This document shows positions 1 through 10,700 of a stretch of 55,551 nt of DNA, piece after piece. This stretch comes from Verrucomicrobiales bacterium (lineage in GTDB: Bacteria > Verrucomicrobiota > Verrucomicrobiia > Verrucomicrobiales > DEV007): contig JARGOP010000005.1 of the NCBI GenBank assembly GCA_029233965.1, forward strand, positions 68,431 through 123,981, in the 5' to 3' direction. The notes under the pieces are model-generated. The model did not search any database and was not told the DNA's origin. It saw nothing but the letters and a program-made list of their open reading frames with translations. Each line of letters begins with the position of its first letter. Position 1 is the first letter of the stretch. The translations under genes and the position numbers were made by a program.

Positions 1-286
1 TGTGCGCTTCGACATCTCCTTCCGCTTCGCCTTCAGGGCCGCCTTCGTAGCCACCCTCGTAGCCGCCCATGGGCGCCCCGCCGGTGTGGATCTGAATCAC
101 GACCTGACCGTTTGTGCCGGGAACAGGCATTCCCCGGCCCGGGCCGGGGCCAACCGGTCCTTCGGTCGGACCAACGCCCGCATTGCCGAGTTTCTCTTTG
201 ATCTGGTCCGCCGGGATGAGAGCGCTTTCGAGCTGCTCGTCTGCGACTTCGTAGAACTTTCCGTCACTACTTCTAAGTATAGCCAT
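1..286 (-). CDS. Gly/Pro/Glu-rich RiPP precursor-like peptide (partial, C-terminus beyond window)
   Basis: This short gene on the minus strand begins at ATG 286 with an AAGGA-type ribosome binding site about 10 bases upstream and stays open to the window edge, giving 95 visible codons. The N-terminus (MAILRSSDGKFYEVADEQLE...) is charged and leader-like. It is followed by a Pro/Gly-rich stretch, a short aliphatic stretch containing QVVIQIH, and a repetitive tail with GGYEGGYEGGPEGEAEG. It has no signal peptide or membrane segment. It lies 89 bases downstream of, and in the same direction as, the radical SAM/SPASM maturase. Known maturases of that kind act on small precursors encoded beside them, so I infer that this is the substrate. 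The layout recalls the multiple-cyclophane precursors named AmcA, but I cannot confirm family membership. The end of the peptide, where modified residues usually lie, is not in the window. A plus-strand reading frame over the same bases is a shadow. Confidence 0.6.
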   Translation of the reverse strand, partial: MAILRSSDGKFYEVADEQLESALIPADQIKEKLGNAGVGPTEGPVGPGPGRGMPVPGTNGQVVIQIHTGGAPMGGYEGGYEGGPEGEAEGDVEAH

Positions 287-375
287 TGTATTATTTCTTT
301 CCTTGGTTTTGGTCTTTGTTTTTGTGGTTGATGGCTCGCCTCGTGAAAAGTCAGTCGGCAACAGCCAGCAAAGGG

Positions 376-1665
376 TTAGACGCCTTCCGGCCCGGGTAAC
401 CGGATAAGCGGGGACTCGGTCTCGGTGATGCCGTGTTCGTTCTCGAGATCTTCGAGCACAATCTGCATGGGCATCTGCACGGTGGAGATGCACTGATGGG
501 ACTCGGTTGAATCGAAGGTGCCGTTCTCGTAGTATTTGTTTGAGGGCGAAGCACCGCCGCAGTATTGATAAAATTCGCACTGCTCGGAACACTTCTTGTT
601 TCCCGCCTCGATGTCGGCGAGAACCTGCTGGAAGGATTCGTTCACCGTCGCATCGAAGAGTGAACCGCTCAGAAGGCTGCCGAAGCTGAACGATCCATAT
701 TTCTCCGTAGGCTGACCGAGCAACTCCGGGGAGAACATCGAGAAGTTCCCGAAGCAGTCGACGTTGATCATGCCGAACGGATCGGCCTCCTGGTTGTAGT
801 AGTCGCCATCCGGCCTGGAGCACCAGCCCGGCTCCAGAATGTTTCGCTCGGCATTCTGAAACTCCCTCACATTGAGTGGGAATCCGTCCGCTTTGTTGCG
901 CAGGTAGAACTGCTTGAGGAAGGAGTAGATGCGATCCCGCCCGTCTTTCGACTGATCCAGGGAGGAGGATTCGTTCGCGCCCTCGACTTCTTCGATATTG
1001 AAACCGATTCCCGTGATGCCGTTGTCCCGGTAAAATTCATACATTTCATCCGGATGATCGACGGACACGTCGGAGATCACGGAGACGACACCGAAAGGAA
1101 CATTGTTTTTCTTGAGGCATTCGGCCCCGCGCATCGCTTTCTCGAAGGTGCCCTCCCCCTTGCGGGTCTTGCGGTGGTGATCATGGATGTGCTGAGGACC
1201 GTCGATGCTGATCCCGACTTCCACTTCATGTTCGTTGAGAAACTTGCACCACTTGTCATTAATAAGCGTACCGTTCGTCTGCACCGAGTGAATCACGAAC
1301 TCCTTTGCCCTCGGGTAGCGATTGATGATTTCAAAGGCCTGCTCATACCACTTGATCGGAACCGCGAGGGGCTCACCGGCGTGCCAGAGGAGGCTGAAAG
1401 GGTTCATGACCAACCCGCTCTCCCAGACCTTGTCCATGACCTTTTCGAGGACCGCGAAATCCATGCGGCGGGTGTCGGTGCGGTTGGGTAGATAACAGTA
1501 GTCGCAGTTGATATTGCAGAACGGGCTTGGCTGGATCACGAGCAACCCCATGGAGAGACGCTCGGAGTTTTGAGGAGTCAGCTTCGGGATCGTTCCGGTA
1601 ACGTGTCCTTCGGAAACGTTCCGTGAGGGAGCGGTAGCTGGGGTGGCTTCAAGGGTGGTTGTCAT
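376..1665 (-). CDS. Radical SAM/SPASM peptide maturase, GrrM/OscB/AmcB-like (cyclophane-forming type)
   Basis: The 429-residue protein carries the radical SAM motif CNINCDYC (C50, C54, C57), which binds the SAM-cleaving 4Fe-4S cluster. The surrounding signature IQPSPFCNINCDYCYLPNR and the later WHAGEPL and FSPELLG motifs are typical of peptide maturases of the GrrM/OscB/AmcB type. They are less like anaerobic sulfatase maturases, which the sulfatases in this window might otherwise suggest. A C-terminal SPASM domain is shown by C359, C363, C369 and C392 plus earlier cysteines in GWCSRP and VDCFGN, enough for auxiliary clusters. Enzymes of this class form carbon-carbon crosslinks from aromatic rings to neighbouring side chains in ribosomal peptides. 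The precursor-like gene follows on the same strand and an ABC exporter diverges upstream. The ATG at 1665 lacks a strong Shine-Dalgarno sequence. The fold is clear; the exact chemistry is inferred. Confidence 0.85.
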   Translation of the reverse strand: MTTTLEATPATAPSRNVSEGHVTGTIPKLTPQNSERLSMGLLVIQPSPFCNINCDYCYLPNRTDTRRMDFAVLEKVMDKVWESGLVMNPFSLLWHAGEPLAVPIKWYEQAFEIINRYPRAKEFVIHSVQTNGTLINDKWCKFLNEHEVEVGISIDGPQHIHDHHRKTRKGEGTFEKAMRGAECLKKNNVPFGVVSVISDVSVDHPDEMYEFYRDNGITGIGFNIEEVEGANESSSLDQSKDGRDRIYSFLKQFYLRNKADGFPLNVREFQNAERNILEPGWCSRPDGDYYNQEADPFGMINVDCFGNFSMFSPELLGQPTEKYGSFSFGSLLSGSLFDATVNESFQQVLADIEAGNKKCSEQCEFYQYCGGASPSNKYYENGTFDSTESHQCISTVQMPMQIVLEDLENEHGITETESPLIRLPGPEGV

Positions 1666-2033
1666 GATGCAGAGGTGACGGTTGGTAAATTTGATGCATG
1701 AAAATTTTCTGAATCTTTTTCAGGATTATTGTTTTGCTAGACCTCGAAAGCCCGGGGACGGTCATTCCTCTTTTCGGCGCGGCGCTTCCGAACAAGATCA
1801 ATGCGATACTGAAGCGGCTGCCTGGCGCGGACTCCGACACGGACGGAGCGAATTCGGTCGTGGAGAGTGGAAGTATTCATGGGAAAAGAGTGCCTGAAGT
1901 TTTGGATGGGTGATCGAGCCTGACAGCAGGAAAGAACTGCCACGGTTTTGCTCTTGAAATTCGAGGCGAACCGAATCACGCTCCCCCGAGAGACGGCCGG
2001 GATCGGCTTCTTATGCAAAGGGATCTCTAATTG
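1666..2033. other. Divergent intergenic region, peptide maturase / ABC exporter
   Basis: These 368 bases separate two divergent genes and must hold both promoters. I see an AT-rich patch near 1690-1735 but no convincing operator, hairpin or coding region. The short reading frames here have no protein-like composition. Confidence 0.4.
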
Positions 2034-3815
2034 ATGGCGAACGACCAGTCCTCACCTCCTCCGGTTCCCGGCGATGACGGCCCTCCAATCGGCGGACCGG
2101 AGGGACCGCCGCCCGGCTACGACCTCGATCCGAAGGAGATGCGACGGCACTGCTTCCGCCTCATCCGCGAAGTCATTGGAAGCCTTGGCTGGAAGTACAA
2201 ACTATGGATTCCAGCAGCGATGCTGCTCTCGGCGGTCCATCTCCTCCCACCGCGCTTTCTCCTTTTCTTCACTGAGCGAACGCAGGCGCTCTCGGAGACG
2301 GGAGCGGACGACTTCATCAAAATGCTCCTGATCTTCGGGGTCGCGATCGGCGTCTGCCAATGGCTCGCACTCGTCTTCGACAGTATTCTCAGCGAATGGC
2401 TTCGACTCACTGTCAGCATTCGCATGAAGCAGGATGCCGTCGACAGCCTGAGCCGTACCCGCATTGATTCCCTCGACTCCGCGCAGCGCGGAGACTGGAT
2501 GACCCGCCTTTCGAGTGACATCTACAACGCCGAGGAATTTCTCACCGCTTCCCTCCCCGGCCAGATCACGAACTTCACGATGATGGTCGGCTCGGCGGCG
2601 CTTTTCTTTTACTACTCAGGTCCCATTGCCTTCATCCCCCTCGCCGCCGCGCTTTTCCTCGGCTGGTTTAATATTGCCGTACAACGAAAGATGGGCCCTG
2701 TCCTTTCGCGGGCCCGAATGCTTGAAGGCGGCGTTTTCCAGTCCATGATCGAAACCTTTGAAGGTCTTCGCACGATCCGCAGCTACGGAGCCGAAAGATT
2801 CACCCGCCGCAAACTAACCGGCCAGTTGAACGAGGTGTACGACGTGGGAATGAGCATCACCAAATCCATGGCTCTGCTCATCGGAGTGACGGAGTTTGTC
2901 GGACAGCTCATCGTCACCGGCCTGCTCACCCTGGTTGCCTTTCAAGTCATCGGGGAAACTCTAACAGCCGAGGATGCACTGGTTTACCCTTTTTACCTGA
3001 CTCTGTTTCTCGGCGCGGCAAAGGGGCTTGTCGGGTCCGCCTACGATTGGAACCGGTTTTTCATCGAGGGGGGGCGCCTCGCTACCCTGCTCTATGATGA
3101 TGACAATAAAGAGGCGGATCGCGAAAAACTGTTTGGTACTTTCGAGTCGGAGACCGCCCTCGTGAAACACTTTTCCGCTGAAGGGGTTTTTATCGCCTAT
3201 GGAGACAATCCCCCCGTGATTCGTGATCAGTCCCTCGAACTGAGTCGCGGAGAGATCGTCGCGCTCATGGGGGAATCCGGCTGCGGAAAATCGACCCTGA
3301 CGGAATCCTTCGCCGGCCTTCGACAGGCCAATGCGGGCTCGTTCACGGCGGCCATGGAATCCGGCGAAACGAGGACCTTTTCGCAGGCACCTCCCTACCT
3401 GGCTGCCTTCGTCGAGCAGCAGCCTTATCTCTTCGTCGGCAGCATCCGGGACAATATCACCCTCGGAGCCGATGGGGTGACGGACGAGGATGTCCGCGCC
3501 GCTCTCGCCGAAGTCGGACTCGACGAGATCGTTTCACGTCGGGGCGGACTCGATCATGTCCTCACGGATCGCGGCCGCAACATGAGCGTCGGCCAGCAGT
3601 ATCGTCTCGCACTCTGCCGTGCCCTCGTCTGCGGTCGCCCTTTCCTCCTCATGGACGAACCCTTTGCCGCTCTCGATGTCGAATCCGTCGAGCGGGTCGT
3701 CGAGGCGATGAAAGAGGAGCGCTCACGGGGAACCGGCATCCTCCTCATCACCCATTTGCTGCCCGAAGGCCTCGACGCTGACCGCCTCGTAGAGTTGGTT
3801 GCGCGCCGGGATTAG
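2034..3815 (+). CDS. ABC transporter, fused membrane and ATPase domains (peptide exporter type)
   Basis: This is a half-transporter of about 593 residues. Its N-terminus (about 1-40) is soluble and Pro/Gly-rich (GGPEGPPPGYD). About five or six hydrophobic segments follow between residues 55 and 335, then an ATPase domain with Walker A GESGCGKST near 413-421, a Q-loop VEQQPYLF, a divergent signature MSVGQQ near 516, Walker B FLLMDEP near 540 and the H-loop LLITH. It lacks an N-terminal C39 leader peptidase domain. ATG 2034 is preferred over TTG 2031 because an AAAGGG sequence lies about 11 bases upstream. It diverges from the radical SAM maturase, so export of the modified peptide is the natural inference, although the substrate is not shown by sequence. 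The MSVGQ signature instead of LSGGQ is a mild deviation. Confidence 0.85.
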   Translation: MANDQSSPPPVPGDDGPPIGGPEGPPPGYDLDPKEMRRHCFRLIREVIGSLGWKYKLWIPAAMLLSAVHLLPPRFLLFFTERTQALSETGADDFIKMLLIFGVAIGVCQWLALVFDSILSEWLRLTVSIRMKQDAVDSLSRTRIDSLDSAQRGDWMTRLSSDIYNAEEFLTASLPGQITNFTMMVGSAALFFYYSGPIAFIPLAAALFLGWFNIAVQRKMGPVLSRARMLEGGVFQSMIETFEGLRTIRSYGAERFTRRKLTGQLNEVYDVGMSITKSMALLIGVTEFVGQLIVTGLLTLVAFQVIGETLTAEDALVYPFYLTLFLGAAKGLVGSAYDWNRFFIEGGRLATLLYDDDNKEADREKLFGTFESETALVKHFSAEGVFIAYGDNPPVIRDQSLELSRGEIVALMGESGCGKSTLTESFAGLRQANAGSFTAAMESGETRTFSQAPPYLAAFVEQQPYLFVGSIRDNITLGADGVTDEDVRAALAEVGLDEIVSRRGGLDHVLTDRGRNMSVGQQYRLALCRALVCGRPFLLMDEPFAALDVESVERVVEAMKEERSRGTGILLITHLLPEGLDADRLVELVARRD

Positions 3816-4933: not shown

Positions 4934-6427
4934 TTACGCCATGATGTCTTTGATCACATGGGCTTCCTCCACCCCGGTGAGTCGCTGGTTCAAGCCGCGG
5001 AATTTGAAGGTAAAGCGCTGATGATCGATCCCGAGGAGATGCAGGATCGTCGCATTGAGATCGCGAATGTGCACCGGATCCTCGGCAATATTGTAGGCGT
5101 AGTCATCGGTCGTGCCGTAGTCATAGCCGGCCTTTACGCCTCCCCCGGCCATCCAGGTCGTGAAACAACGCCCATGGTGGTCACGGCCCGAGGTCGGAGC
5201 CCCGAACTGCCCCTGACTGTAAACGGTGCGGCCGAATTCCCCGCCCCAGATCACGAGAGTGTCATCGAGCATCCCGAGACGCTTCAAATCAGTCACCAGC
5301 GCAGCCGAAGCCTGATCGACATCCTGACATTGACGCGGCAACTGCGAGCGAATCGAAATATGCTGGTCCCATCCCCGGTGGAAAAGCTGCACGAAGCGGA
5401 CTCCGCGCTGAACCATGCGTCGTGCCATAAGACAGTTCGCGGCGAAAGTGCCGGGACGACGGGCTTCCTCTCCATACAGCTCGAAAGTGGACTCGGGTTC
5501 ATCCGAAAAGTCCGTCAGGTCGGGAACCGATGTCTGCATCCGATAGGCCATCTCATAGGCTTCGACACGGGCGAGTGTTTCCGGGTCTCCCGCTGCCTCG
5601 GCCTGCTGACGGTTCAGGTCGCCAAGGGTGTCGAGAAGGCGGCGGCGGGCGTCGCGGGAAACGCCGGGAGGATTTTTCAGATAAAGAACCGGATTCGCCC
5701 CGGGACGCAGCATGACACCCTGATGGCTCGAGGGGAGATAGCCGCTGCCCCAGAGGCGGGAGAAGAGCGGCTGCCCCGGATTCTTCCCGGTCCCCTGACT
5801 GAGCAGGACCATGTAAGCGGGGAAGTTTTCATTCTCCCGCCCGAGGCCGTAGCTGAGCCACGCCCCCATCGAGGCGTGCCCCATCTGCTGGGAACCGGTA
5901 TTGATGTAGGTGACGCCGGGATCGTGATTGATCGCCTCGGTCCACATCGAGCGAATGATCGTCATGTCATCGGCGATGCCCTGCATGTGCGGGATGATGT
6001 TGCCCATCCAGGTGCCCCGCTCACCACAGCGCTTGCCGCCCCAGAGTGAATTGACAACGGGAAAGCTCGCCTGCCGGGCGGTCATGCCGGTGAGGCGCTG
6101 ATTGCCCCGCACCGAGTCCGGCAGGTCACTCCCGTGATGCTTGTCGAGGAAGTCCTTCCCGTCAAAGAGGTCCACGTGACTCGGGCCGCCGGATTGAAAG
6201 AGGTAGATGACCCGCTTTGCCTTCGGCGCAAAGTGCGGTAGACCCGGTATGCCATTCTGCGAAATGGGTCTCCCTGCGTCGAGGAGGGCACCCTGCCCTT
6301 CCTGCGCCATCATTTGTCCGAGGGCGACACCGCCGAGGCCGGCGGCGGTCTTCCCGAACAGGGAGCGCCGCGTCATTTGCTGACGCTGCATTTCGTCAAA
6401 GGTATGAGTGAGTGGAGTTCTGATCAT
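4934..6427 (-). CDS. DUF1501 secreted protein with Tat signal
   Basis: The 497-residue protein starts with a short tail and a twin-arginine signal (RR at 20-21, RRSLFGKTAAGLGGVALG), so it is probably exported folded. The body matches DUF1501, an alkaline phosphatase/sulfatase-fold family common in planctomycetes and verrucomicrobia: FQSGGPSHVDLFDGK, GAWLSYGLG, the FGRT motif in GGEFGRTVYSQG, GRDHHGR and a C-terminal ATILHLLGIDH. The biochemical function of DUF1501 proteins is not established. They are typically encoded beside DUF1549/DUF1553 cytochrome proteins, as here. The start codon overlaps the stop of the upstream sulfatase by four bases (ATGA), so the two are translationally coupled. 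The organisation points to joint action in the periplasm on a sulfated polysaccharide. Confidence 0.92.
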   Translation of the reverse strand: MIRTPLTHTFDEMQRQQMTRRSLFGKTAAGLGGVALGQMMAQEGQGALLDAGRPISQNGIPGLPHFAPKAKRVIYLFQSGGPSHVDLFDGKDFLDKHHGSDLPDSVRGNQRLTGMTARQASFPVVNSLWGGKRCGERGTWMGNIIPHMQGIADDMTIIRSMWTEAINHDPGVTYINTGSQQMGHASMGAWLSYGLGRENENFPAYMVLLSQGTGKNPGQPLFSRLWGSGYLPSSHQGVMLRPGANPVLYLKNPPGVSRDARRRLLDTLGDLNRQQAEAAGDPETLARVEAYEMAYRMQTSVPDLTDFSDEPESTFELYGEEARRPGTFAANCLMARRMVQRGVRFVQLFHRGWDQHISIRSQLPRQCQDVDQASAALVTDLKRLGMLDDTLVIWGGEFGRTVYSQGQFGAPTSGRDHHGRCFTTWMAGGGVKAGYDYGTTDDYAYNIAEDPVHIRDLNATILHLLGIDHQRFTFKFRGLNQRLTGVEEAHVIKDIMA

Positions 6428-7740
6428 GGCCGGGGAAAGGTCTGGTTGAGCGTGGCTTGAAAGCGTTTCACGAGATCGGGATGCTGAGCGGCTACATTTA
6501 TGGTTTCGTCAGGGTCTTTACTGAGATCAAAAAGTTGCACCGGGACGCGATCCCAGTCATGCACGGTGAGGTATTTCGTCGTGTCGATTCCATCGTGGCG
6601 GCGGAGAAATTTCCAGTTTCCTTCCCGCATCCACGAATACTGGAGCGTCTCAAAGGGTTTCCCCGGGGTCATGTTGTGGATCGAATAGGCGGCGCCTTCG
6701 ACCTCCGTTCGGGTCTCTGTCGTGAGATCAATTCCCGGCAGTCCTTCGGGAGCTTCAAAGCCGCAAAGACTGAGGATGGTGGGGAAAAGGTCGAGCGAAC
6801 TCGCGAATCCGTCGGCGCGCTGCGGCTCGATCTTTCCCTTCCACGAAAAGAAGATCGGGGTTCGAATCCCCAACTCGTAGGGCGAGCCTTTCGACTTCGG
6901 CGCGTAGTCCGGCCACCATCCTTCCGGAAGCGGCATTCTCGAATCGTCCGCCGCGAGCCAGCCATTGTCGCAGACGTAGACAAAGAGCGTGTTTTCTTCG
7001 AGGCCGCGGCGCTGGATCGAGGCAATCAGTTCGCCGCAGGTCTGATCGAACCACTCACACATCGCGTAGTATTTCGCGGTGCCTTCGGTGAGTCCTTTGT
7101 CCGCGTAGCGAGCCAGAATTTCCGCGGGAGGATTGTGCGGGGTGTGCGGCAGGAACGGCGCATACCAGAGAAAAAACGGCTTCTCCTCTGCCTGCGCCTC
7201 ATCGAGAAAAGCTTCGATCGGCGCGAGTCCGTCACGGCCAATCTTGAGGCCGAGATCCCCGTGTCGTCCTCCTTTCGCGGGATCCCCGTGGGTCATCCCG
7301 TGAGTGAATCCCCCGTCCTTTGCGGAGCCCTCCCACCACTTTCCTGACTGATGCGCGAGGTAACCTTTTTCGACGAGAAAACGAATCAGACCCGGGTGTT
7401 CATGAAACGCTTTTCGAACAGGTCGATCCTCCGCGTCGCGCGCCAACTTTCTGGCGGGGCTGACATCATTCCCGACGACGCCATGCTGATGTGGGGGCAG
7501 GCCGGTGACCATCGATGCCAGTGAGGGACGGCACAGCGGCGAGACGACATAGCCTTTTTTAAAAAGCAGGCTCGTTTCCGCGAGGTCGTCCAGATGAGGG
7601 GTCTGGACGACCTCATTGCCCATAAAGCCATAGTCCTCCCAACCCTGATCGTCAGAGAGAATGAAGACCACGTTCGGCGGCTCCGCCTGCGCGAGTAGAG
7701 GAAAAAGGAGACCGAGAAAGATGGAGAAAAGTCGATTCAA
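6424..7740 (-). CDS. Secreted S1 sulfatase with CRPSL variant of the formylglycine motif
   Basis: The protein (438 residues) starts at TTG 7740, one base after the stop of the large cytochrome protein, and has a signal peptide ending near LAQA (residue 19). The sulfatase N-terminal signature PNVVFILSDDQG provides metal-binding aspartates. The nucleophile region is SPLCRPSLASMVTG with C70, so the motif reads C-x-P-S-L where the S1 consensus is C-x-P-S-R. Other sulfatase landmarks are SGKWW, the DNGWLA metal site and a C-terminal QLFDLSKDPDE. It hydrolyses sulfate esters, most likely on a polysaccharide. It is the third gene of the sigma-factor operon and overlaps DUF1501. The Leu for Arg change may define a subgroup or alter maturation. 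No sulfatase-activating enzyme is encoded in the window. Confidence 0.93.
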   Translation of the reverse strand: MNRLFSIFLGLLFPLLAQAEPPNVVFILSDDQGWEDYGFMGNEVVQTPHLDDLAETSLLFKKGYVVSPLCRPSLASMVTGLPPHQHGVVGNDVSPARKLARDAEDRPVRKAFHEHPGLIRFLVEKGYLAHQSGKWWEGSAKDGGFTHGMTHGDPAKGGRHGDLGLKIGRDGLAPIEAFLDEAQAEEKPFFLWYAPFLPHTPHNPPAEILARYADKGLTEGTAKYYAMCEWFDQTCGELIASIQRRGLEENTLFVYVCDNGWLAADDSRMPLPEGWWPDYAPKSKGSPYELGIRTPIFFSWKGKIEPQRADGFASSLDLFPTILSLCGFEAPEGLPGIDLTTETRTEVEGAAYSIHNMTPGKPFETLQYSWMREGNWKFLRRHDGIDTTKYLTVHDWDRVPVQLFDLSKDPDETINVAAQHPDLVKRFQATLNQTFPRP

Positions 7741-7741
7741 A

Positions 7742-10700
7742 TTAAAGTCGTGTCAGGGTTTCACTGAGATTGAAAAGAAGGCTCGAGACTTGCGTCCAGA
7801 CCGCTTGATCCACCGCCGGGTGGGATCGATTCACGGGAGCCTCCCCCACCGCGATCAATGCCTCGGCGGCAGCGGGATCGCTCTCGTAGCGGGCCCGTTC
7901 ATCGGTGAGAAAGGAATCGAGCGCATTCAACTCGGCGGCAACCGGCGGACGGCCTGTCACTTTTTCAAAAGCAAGATTCAAGCGTTCCCGGTTGTCACTA
8001 CCCGGGGTGGCGTCGAGGAGGCGGGCCGCGAAGACCCGTGAGGCCTCCGCGAACTGGGGATCATTGAGCGTCACGAGCGCCTGCAGCGGTGTGTTCGTAA
8101 CCCCGCGCTCCGTGATGCACATCTCGCGGTTCGGCGCATCAAAGGCGGACATGCTCGGGTGCGGGCTCGTCCGTTTCACGATCGTGTAGAGACTGCGTCG
8201 ATAGAGCTTCTCTCCCCGGTCCTGGACAAAGACCTGCTTCGTCGCCGGAGTGCTCCCGAAGTGACTGACCTCTTTCCAGAGACCGGCGGGCTGATAGGGC
8301 TGGACGCTCGGTCCGCCGATTCGGGGAACGAGCAGATCACTCACCGCGAGCGCCTGGTCCCGCACGAACTCCGCGGCGAGGCGGAAGCGCGGGCCACGAG
8401 CGAGGAGCCGGTTATTCGGGTCTTTCTCACGCTGCTCCGGATTCGCCGATGAATCCTGACGATAGGTCGCACTGCTGACGATCTGTTTGATGAGTGCCTT
8501 TTGGTCCCAGCCGCTTTCCATGAACTCGACCGCGAGCCAGTCGATCAATTCAGGGTGACTCGGCCACTCACCCTGCGAGCCAAAGTCAGCCGTCGTCGCG
8601 ACAATTCCGGTCCCGAAGAAAATCTGCCAGATCCGGTTCACGGCGACACGGGCGGTGAGCGGATTTTCAGGATCCACCATCCAGTTTGCGAGATCGAGGC
8701 GCGTGGCCCTGCCTTCCGCTTTTATAGGAAGGAGGACGGCCGGGGTCGCGGAACTCACCTTCTCCGTCGGCGCATCATACTGCCCCCGGTCGAGGACGAA
8801 GGTTTCCCGCGGTTTCGGTGCGGTATTCATGACAAGGACGGAGTGGGATTCGGTCAGGACCTTGATTCGCTCTTCGAGATTGGCGAGGCGGATCCGGTCC
8901 CGCTCAAGACCGGGCGCTTCGTCGCGGAAGGCGGCAAGCACCATCTCACGCTCTTCGGCGGACCACTGCGCTTCGTCCTTCCCCAGAGCCGTCACCAGTT
9001 CCCGGGGAAAGCGGCTCTCCGTGTCGCTGCCAGTGAAGGCGTCGATGCGCCACTGAAAAGGCAGAGAGTTCGATTTTCCGTAGAACACCATCACCGAGAT
9101 GTAAGGCGTTTTTGCCGGATCGATCGGCTCGTTGAAGGTTACGGTGAGGTGAGGGTTTCCATCCGACGCATCCGGCTGCCACCACTCCAGGTTGCGCTCG
9201 TCGAGAACGTGAGTCGGTCGATTGATCCCGTCGAATGAGCTGGCCGTCGCCCGCGAAAGATCGAGCTGATTGTAATACTCGACCTGCTTCGCCGCCTGGG
9301 TTCCCGCAGAGACGAGAACGGTCGTCACTTTCGGCGCATTGTCCGCATGAGGGGTTAGCTTGCCCGTTTCCGGCTCGGGAATGATGTGAACCCGGATCCC
9401 GTTCACGGACTCCACCTCAGGCAATTTCAAGGCATGACTGAAAGCGTTCAGGCCACCGCTTGGCTCCATGACGACGACCGAACCATCTTCAGCGACTTCA
9501 AACGGGCCGGGGCGGTTCGGGCTGGAAGCATCGAGCGTCTCAAGGGAGTGCAGTTTGAATGCCCGGCCGCGCTCTTTTTCCTCTGATTGCGCAAGCGCGA
9601 GCCACTCCTCAAATCCCTCGGTACTGCTCCCGAGCTTCGCCTTGAGGTCGGCGAGTTCCTTCCGGAGAGCCGACAGTTCATGTCCGGGGATCACGGTCTG
9701 TGCCATCAGGCTCGGCTTCGCGTTGACGCCGCCGTTGCCGTCAAGTCCCCGATCATCCAGCTCATTGAAAAAGGAGAAAAACTGGTAGTATTCCTTGATC
9801 GAAATCGGGTCATACTTGTGGTCGTGACACTGGGCGCAGGCCATCGTCAGGCCGAGGAAAACTTCGCTCGTCGTTTTGACGCGGTCGGCGGCGTAGTTCG
9901 TCAGATTCTCTTCGGGAATCGTTCCGCCCTCGTGAGTGATCATGTGATTGCGGTTGAATCCGGTCGCCGTGATCTGCGCAGGAGTCGCGTTGGGGAGGAG
10001 GTCTCCGGCAATCTGCTCGGTCGTGAATTGGTCAAAGGGCTTGTTCTCGTTGTAGGCCTGAATGACCCAGTCGCGCCAGAGCCACATGTCGCGCCCGCCG
10101 TCGATGGAGTAGCCGTTCGTATCCGCGTAGCGCGCCTGGTCGAGCCAGGGCACCGCCATGCGTTCTCCAAAGTGAGGCGAAGCAAGGAGCCGGTCGATCG
10201 TCGCCGTCCAGGCCGCCTCACTATCTTTTGCATACCCGGCGACAAACCCTTCCACCTCGTCATGCGTCGGAGGAAGCCCGGTCAGGTCAAAGGTGAGTCG
10301 ACGAATCAAGGTGCGGGGATTGGCTTCCGGCGAAGGCTCCATCCCCTCCTCTTTCATCCTTGCGAAGGTGAAGGCGTCAATTTCATTGCGTCCCCAGTCC
10401 GCAGTGGGAACTTCCGGACGGACCGGTGACTCGTAGGCCCAGTGGCCTTCATACTCCGCGCCTTCTTCGATCCAGCGTTTGATGAGCTGCTTTTGTTCTT
10501 CGGTCAGGACGAGGTGTGACTCCGGCGGCGGCATGAGCTCATCCTCATCCTCTGAAATGATCCTCCACCACGCCTCGCTTTTGGTAAGATCACCGGGAAC
10601 AATCGCGACGGTTCCACCGAGATCTTCGGTCGCTCCCTCGAGAGAATCGAGTCGAAGGTCAGCGCGGCGACCATGCTCGTCAGGTCCATGACAGTGAAAG

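What the first reader, a model, noticed from the sequence alone, without database searches (positions are those of the whole stretch)
1..3815. Candidate radical SAM RiPP locus: precursor-like peptide, GrrM/AmcB-type maturase and ABC exporter
A small Gly/Pro/Glu/Tyr-rich gene lies directly after a radical SAM/SPASM maturase with the sequence signature of cyclophane-forming enzymes, beside a divergent ABC exporter. The visible tail repeats are Y-E-G-G. In known three-residue cyclophanes the third residue gives its beta carbon; glycine has none, so the product, if made in this repeat, would need different chemistry or different residues further along the cut-off C-terminus.
Basis: partly seen in the sequence, partly recalled or inferred. 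Interest (0 to 1): 0.82.

Follow-up and report, generated by a model that had tools for sequence, protein, structure and literature searches.

The report
Cyclophane peptide locus with iron oxygenase
An uncultured Verrucomicrobiales bacterium carries a conserved gene set predicted to make and export a short Trp/Arg/Asn/Cys-rich peptide that is cross-linked by a radical SAM enzyme and probably also oxidised by an iron enzyme, a pairing not found described in the literature searched here.

Summary
In detail: the maturase passes the GrrM/OscB cut-off (433 vs 310 bits) and fails AmcB and sulfatase-maturase models; the small gene and divergent ABC exporter are where stated. The window ends at a 100-N scaffold gap inside the small gene. 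Past the gap the gene ends in NWCWRRNYFNNCWRRNCWRNHCRW, so YEGG belongs to a variable linker and the glycine puzzle disappears. Further on lie an MNIO (PF05114) with an extra C-terminal domain, a GAF gene and a QhpE-like S8 protease.

Among 74 genomes of the family, maturase and long-form MNIO occur in the same 20; the precursor is seen in 19 (the 20th is broken at contig ends), with conserved W-R-R-N, F-x-N and C-W-R-N motifs. Twelve maturases outside the clade have no MNIO relative in the DNA held; the ten precursors recognised there have W-x-N/D repeats without Cys.

Best explanation: a RiPP pathway in which a GrrM-type enzyme makes several cyclophanes, the MNIO oxidises Cys between them, the S8 protease removes the leader and the ABC protein exports a cationic 21-28-residue peptide. 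Chemistry and function are inferred. New variant of a known kind.

The parts
2..286 (-). First 95 codons of the RiPP precursor gene (conserved leader and the Gly/Pro/Glu linker). The rest, with the core, lies left of the window across a 100-N gap (L002:7772-7900). Further left, also outside the window: MNIO L002:6405-7613 (-), GAF L002:5587-6339 (-), S8 protease L002:4842-5624 (-); window position = L002 position minus 8000.
376..1665 (-). GrrM/OscB-type radical SAM peptide maturase, 429 aa; CxxxCxxC at residues 50-57 invariant in 19 aligned relatives
   Evidence: TIGR04261 433 bits, cut-off 310; 19 of 19 clade members match the model; alignment
2031..3815 (+). Divergent ABC exporter (permease and ATPase fused, no peptidase-domain match); the ATG at 2034 may be the true start
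   Evidence: PF00664 and PF00005; beside the maturase in 19 of 20 carrier genomes, the other at a contig end

Best explanation
A RiPP biosynthetic locus. The precursor has a conserved leader (MAILRS.DGKFY...). The GrrM/OscB-type radical SAM enzyme joins the aromatic ring of W or F to the beta-carbon of the residue two places on (W-R-N, F-x-N; in W-R-R-N either Arg at +2 or Asn at +3), giving several small cyclophanes. The MNIO, whose extra helical C-terminal domain may replace the usual separate partner protein, oxidises one or more Cys lying between the cyclophanes. The QhpE-like S8 protease cuts the leader, probably near the invariant His before the core, and the ABC protein exports the free cationic peptide of 21-28 residues. 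Shown: the genes, their families, conserved order, co-occurrence and the conserved core motifs. Inferred: the reactions, the order of steps, the cleavage site and any activity (antimicrobial or metal-binding).
For: Maturase above the GrrM/OscB cut-off and 19 of 19 relatives match that model. Maturase in 20 of 74 family genomes, long-form MNIO (E <= 1e-120) in the same 20 (in G022 split over two contigs). Precursor in 19 of 20 genomes, 20 precursors in all. In 20 of 20 the core keeps W, Asn, W, R, N, C, R, N columns and a His before the core; W3 is W in 18, F in 2; RN-C-[WF]-R-N in 20 of 20, F-x-N in 17 of 20. OscB joins Trp and Phe to Asn/Asp at i+2 (PMC11002830, passages). MNIO: PF05114 235 bits, fold like 3bww, TglH, MbnB, putative metal-binding columns kept. 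S8 catalytic Asp/His/Ser columns in 12 of 12 aligned. Outside the clade: no MNIO relative beside 12 of 12 maturases, no Cys inside the W-x-N/D repeats of the 10 precursors recognised, while each of the 20 clade precursors has at least 2 Cys in its last 30 residues. MNIO-bearing maturases on one side of a branch, support 100/100.
Against: No chemistry is shown. The first two motifs are mostly W-R-R-N, where i+2 is Arg, unlike the OscB precedent (Asn/Asp). Clade precursors match no NCBIfam model, GrrA included (3 of 3 scanned whole). No Pfam SPASM match at E <= 1. The MNIO C-terminal domain could not be placed. One precursor has only 2 Cys, one lacks the first Cys. The S8 gene lies outside the fetched locus in 6 of 20 genomes, in one of them only as a fragment. 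In three loci unrelated genes sit between the cluster genes. Relatives are metagenome-assembled and of one bacterial family, so co-occurrence partly reflects descent. Whether MNIO acts on Cys rather than another residue is unknown.
Confidence: 0.72

Rival explanations
1. The radical SAM enzyme uses the core Cys and makes thioether links (sactipeptide or ranthipeptide-like) rather than, or besides, aromatic cyclophanes; the Cys conservation then has nothing to do with the MNIO.
For: Cores hold 2-5 Cys and the C of RNC[WF]RN is in 20 of 20; the PapB ranthipeptide model matches weakly (105 bits).
Against: Best model by far is GrrM/OscB (433 bits; PapB cut-off 340 not reached); aromatic and Asn positions are as invariant as the best Cys, several Cys positions vary.
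Confidence: 0.12
2. The MNIO modifies a non-Cys residue of the core (for example Asn, Asp-like or aromatic positions), as some MNIOs do, and Cys serves another purpose such as disulfides.
For: MNIOs with other targets are known: ortho-hydroxylation of Phe (PMC12257519, abstract passage), Asp hydroxylation (PMC13060819, passages). Asn and Trp are more invariant than most Cys here.
Against: Cys appears in the core only in the MNIO-bearing clade; MNIOs often act on Cys (PMC13097082, section 5).
Confidence: 0.3
3. The Y-E-G-G linker is the modified repeat.
For: It is the repeat visible in the window.
Against: YEGG in 5 of 20 precursors, and 4 of 20 have almost no linker; the linker is the least constrained part (dN/dS about 0.22 against 0.07 leader and 0.16 core).
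Confidence: 0.03
4. The MNIO belongs to a separate neighbouring pathway and does not act on this precursor.
For: MNIOs mostly act with separate partner proteins in their own clusters (PMC12452194, section 18); a few unrelated genes interrupt the cluster.
Against: Same 20 of 74 genomes for both genes, the MNIO directly following the precursor in most loci; no other precursor gene was noticed.
Confidence: 0.08

Closest known systems
Triceptides made by GrrM/OscB-type enzymes with GrrA/OscA precursors (TIGR04261 / TIGR04260)
   Same: Maturase family (433 bits, cut-off 310); aromatic-x-Asn motifs in the core.
   Different: Precursor lies after, not before, the maturase; leader without the signal-like start seen by eye in the outside precursors; no TIGR04260 match in 3 of 3 clade precursors, whereas 2 of 7 outside precursors pass its cut-off; Cys in the core; MNIO, ABC exporter and S8 protease in the system.
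MNIO-modified RiPPs: bufferins/captophorins, methanobactins, biphenomycin-like peptides
   Same: PF05114 enzyme of the same fold; biphenomycin-like clusters also pair an MNIO with a radical SAM enzyme, there B12-dependent (PMC12257519, passages).
   Different: Below the HvfB (204.5 of 360), BufB (185.7 of 310), ApyH, ChrH and MbnB cut-offs; no DUF2063 match in the neighbours or the extra domain; different precursor and maturase.
qhp operon of quinohemoprotein amine dehydrogenase (QhpD/E/F)
   Same: Radical SAM cross-linking, then a QhpE subtilisin-like protease removes the leader before ABC export (PMC7876137, passages).
   Different: An analogy in logistics only: the S8 protease scores 116 against the QhpE cut-off of 165; no dehydrogenase genes among the neighbours scanned.

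Membership tests
GrrM/OscB maturases (TIGR04261) | Curated whole-protein score cut-off | tested here: met
   433 bits against 310
GrrM/OscB maturases (TIGR04261) | Radical SAM CxxxCxxC motif | tested here: met
   C50, C54, C57 invariant in 19 rows
GrrM/OscB maturases (TIGR04261) | SPASM-type auxiliary cluster domain | tested here: inconclusive
   No Pfam SPASM match at E <= 1, though further Cys (304, 359, 363, 369, 392) are invariant in 19 rows
GrrM/OscB maturases (TIGR04261) | Three-residue cyclophane formation | not testable with these tools
   Needs co-expression and NMR/MS
GrrA/OscA1 precursors (TIGR04260) | Curated score cut-off | tested here: not met
   0 of 3 clade precursors match at E <= 10; 2 of 7 outside precursors pass as a control. 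This genome's own precursor was scanned only in pieces, no match
AmcB maturase (NF041718) | Curated score cut-off | tested here: not met
   303.5 against 425
Anaerobic sulfatase maturase (TIGR03942) | Curated score cut-off | tested here: not met
   173.8 against 349.45
MNIO superfamily (PF05114) | Pfam cut-off and fold | tested here: met
   235.4 bits against 25; best fold matches 3bww, TglH, MbnB
MNIO superfamily (PF05114) | Metal-binding residues | tested here: met
   H105, E150, N151, D183, N186, H214, H230, E258 invariant in 18 rows and aligned with the same letters in 3bww and MbnB; that these are the ligands is recalled
Bufferin/captophorin MNIO systems | HvfB or BufB cut-off and a DUF2063 partner | tested here: not met
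   204.5 of 360, 185.7 of 310; no DUF2063 match in 8 neighbouring proteins or in 10 C-terminal domains
QhpE protease (NF049966) | Curated score cut-off | tested here: not met
   116.1 against 165

The most novel reading that the evidence does not exclude
A RiPP class in which cyclophanes made by a GrrM-type radical SAM enzyme alternate with Cys-derived groups (for example thiooxazole, or thioamide/oxazolone) made by an MNIO that carries its own built-in partner domain: a rigid, cationic, C-W-x-N-patterned exported peptide, possibly antimicrobial or metal-binding.
Probability: 0.45. Interest if true: 0.78.

Novelty: new variant of a known kind. Interest (0 to 1): 0.62.

Why it matters
It appears to pair two enzyme families of much current interest in peptide chemistry on one short core, in a bacterial group for which my searches found no characterised peptide of this kind. 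The system is compact (precursor, radical SAM enzyme, MNIO, protease, exporter) and comes with 20 natural precursor variants, so the rules for the modified sites, the order of action and the role of the extra MNIO domain can be tested directly. The W-R-R-N motif asks whether a GrrM-type enzyme can join Trp to Arg (i+2) or span four residues to Asn.

Tried and rejected
Considered and rejected: sulfatase maturase and AmcB (below cut-off); YEGG as core; the gap as real missing sequence (exact 55-base overlap, frame and relatives' lengths).

Led nowhere: viral contigs with the maturase gave 4 pattern matches and no relative. The MNIO C-terminal domain alone: Pfam LigA in 4 of 10 members, best E 0.0045; Foldseek best E 3.6; VIA-align best Z 4.2 at rmsd above 12: fold unresolved. 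Plasmid records: 19 with an MNIO match, none covering 80% of the query; in the 10 listed the match ends by residue 288, 9 were not listed. A phylum sample of 387 genomes gave the maturase (E <= 1e-60) only in this genome; an order sample of 288 gave 21 genomes, 20 of them the family carriers plus G217. The archaeal hit L073 (30% over 125 residues) was dropped from counts.

Papers: searches pairing MNIO, multinuclear non-heme iron or DUF692 with cyclophane, triceptide, radical SAM or SPASM, GrrM with cyclophane and Verrucomicrobia with RiPP listed no title or abstract start that reports this pairing; one search listed 25 of 42 papers. Most listed papers I saw only as listings; passages were read in PMC12452194, PMC12257519, PMC13060819, PMC13097082, PMC11002830, PMC7876137. 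The library lacks most subscription journals, and figure panels and supplements of the MNIO survey PMC12452194 were not visible to me.

Full report
Observation. The maturase, small gene and divergent ABC exporter are present at the stated places. The window is bases 68431-123981 of contig C23 of a 4.8-Mb genome, 96% complete. Its named relatives are metagenome-assembled genomes labelled Verrucomicrobiales, Verrucomicrobiia, Verrucomicrobia or Akkermansiaceae.

The cut-off gene. I took 10 kb across the left edge (L002). The window begins at a 100-N gap. The 55 bases on either side are identical (L002:7846-7900 and 8001-8055), which is what two unmerged contig ends look like (that 55 is a common assembler word size is recalled). 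Counting the overlap once gives an in-frame 119-aa protein ending VEAH-NWCWRRNYFNNCWRRNCWRNHCRW. The nearest relatives have 119 and 120 aa with the same architecture and no gap. With 100 N taken literally the frame is lost.

Neighbours. After the precursor come a 402-aa MNIO (PF05114, 235 bits), a GAF-domain protein and an S8 protease whose best NCBIfam model is QhpE, below cut-off. The MNIO model (mean pLDDT 86) matches 3bww, TglH and MbnB. Residues from about 309 on form an additional helical domain that I could not place.

Conservation. Of 74 genomes of the family, 20 carry the maturase, and the same 20 carry the long-form MNIO at E <= 1e-120 (in G022 it is split over two contigs). Eight others have more distant MNIOs: seven at E 1e-36 to 1e-42, and G065 at 1.8e-70; three carriers also have a second, ordinary MNIO. 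The divergent exporter is beside the maturase in 19 of 20 and the precursor is present in 19 of 20; the two exceptions (G031, G026) are different genomes, each at a contig end. An S8 relative is in 20 of 20: inside the fetched locus in 14, elsewhere in 6 (in G022 only a fragment of the close form was seen). More distant S8 paralogues (at most 118 bits) occur in 27 of the 54 genomes without the maturase. The GAF gene is in 8 of the loci. In three loci unrelated genes are inserted. One genome has two tandem precursors.

Core. Over 20 precursors, W1, the Asn before the second Trp, W2, R, N, C, R, N and the His before the core are invariant; W3 is W in 18 and F in 2. F-x-N and the first W-R-[RH]-N are each present in 17; the other 3 are short forms with W-R-N or W-H-N at that place. 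Cores, taken as everything after the [AP]-H pair, are 21-28 residues long with 3-7 Arg/Lys, no Asp/Glu and 2-5 Cys. Rough dN/dS over 15 long-form sequences (5 divergent or short ones left out): leader 0.07, linker 0.22, core 0.16, with synonymous sites near saturation; between this genome and L023 the core shows 12.2 changes over 73.8 non-synonymous sites against 7.8 over 13.2 synonymous ones.

Contrast. A scan of named genomes with the maturase alignment gave 32 loci: 20 of the clade just described, 11 outside it in Verrucomicrobiota (three labelled Spartobacteria), Bacteroidota and Cyanobacteriota, and one short archaeal match that I dropped. One more outside maturase is G217. None of these 12 has a relative of the MNIO, exporter or protease in the DNA held (in some the contig ends nearby). 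In 10 of 12 I recognise a W-x-N/D repeat precursor without Cys inside the repeat; in L064 and L067 none was found. Two of seven such outside precursors scanned pass the GrrA/OscA1 cut-off, while 0 of 3 clade precursors match any NCBIfam model. A tree of 31 maturases puts the 19 clade members on one side of a branch with 100/100 support; the root is the midpoint, and one of the 19 (G026) has its MNIO on another contig.

How it probably works. OscB joins Trp C7 and Phe C4 to the beta carbon of Asn (or, for Trp, Asp) two residues on, and XncB joins Trp to Arg or Asn (PMC11002830, passages). By that precedent F-x-N and W-R-N are canonical sites and W-R-R-N is open. MNIOs often act on Cys, making 5-thiooxazole or oxazolone/thioamide (PMC13097082, abstract and sections 5 and 7), commonly with a separate partner protein (PMC12452194, sections 17 and 18). 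Here no DUF2063 partner was recognised, and the extra domain is a candidate replacement. QhpE and QhpF remove the leader in the cytoplasm and export the product in the qhp system (PMC7876137, passages), an analogy for the S8 protease and the ABC protein. The activity of the product is unknown: Arg/Trp richness recalls antimicrobial peptides (recalled), Cys/His content and the MNIO recall copper binding.

Novelty. MNIO with a radical SAM enzyme is known in biphenomycin-like clusters (PMC12257519, passages). I found no report of an MNIO with a GrrM/OscB-type cyclophane enzyme, within a library that lacks most subscription journals. I therefore call it a new variant of a known kind.

Noticed in passing
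L074:1698-2882 (G065:C101): A more distant MNIO with part of the same C-terminal extension (37% identity to residue 344) follows an ABC protein on a 3-kb contig; this genome lacks the maturase at E <= 1e-30.
   Followed up: partly
L077:5690-5860 (G025:C18): A 57-residue stretch 75% identical to the end of the MNIO stands alone far from the cluster, with stop codons in the wider match: apparently a duplicated remnant.
   Followed up: no
G000:C70:44538-45254 and G000:C95:21048-21761: Two more QhpE-like S8 proteases (30-33% identity) in this genome; such paralogues are common in the family and might mark other peptide loci.
   Followed up: no
L031:5344-6166: Two tandem precursor genes with slightly different, tyrosine/glycine-ended cores in one cluster.
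   Followed up: no
window 4934-7740: Two adjacent minus-strand genes that by eye look like a DUF1501-type protein and a sulfatase (recalled from the translations, not searched).
   Followed up: no
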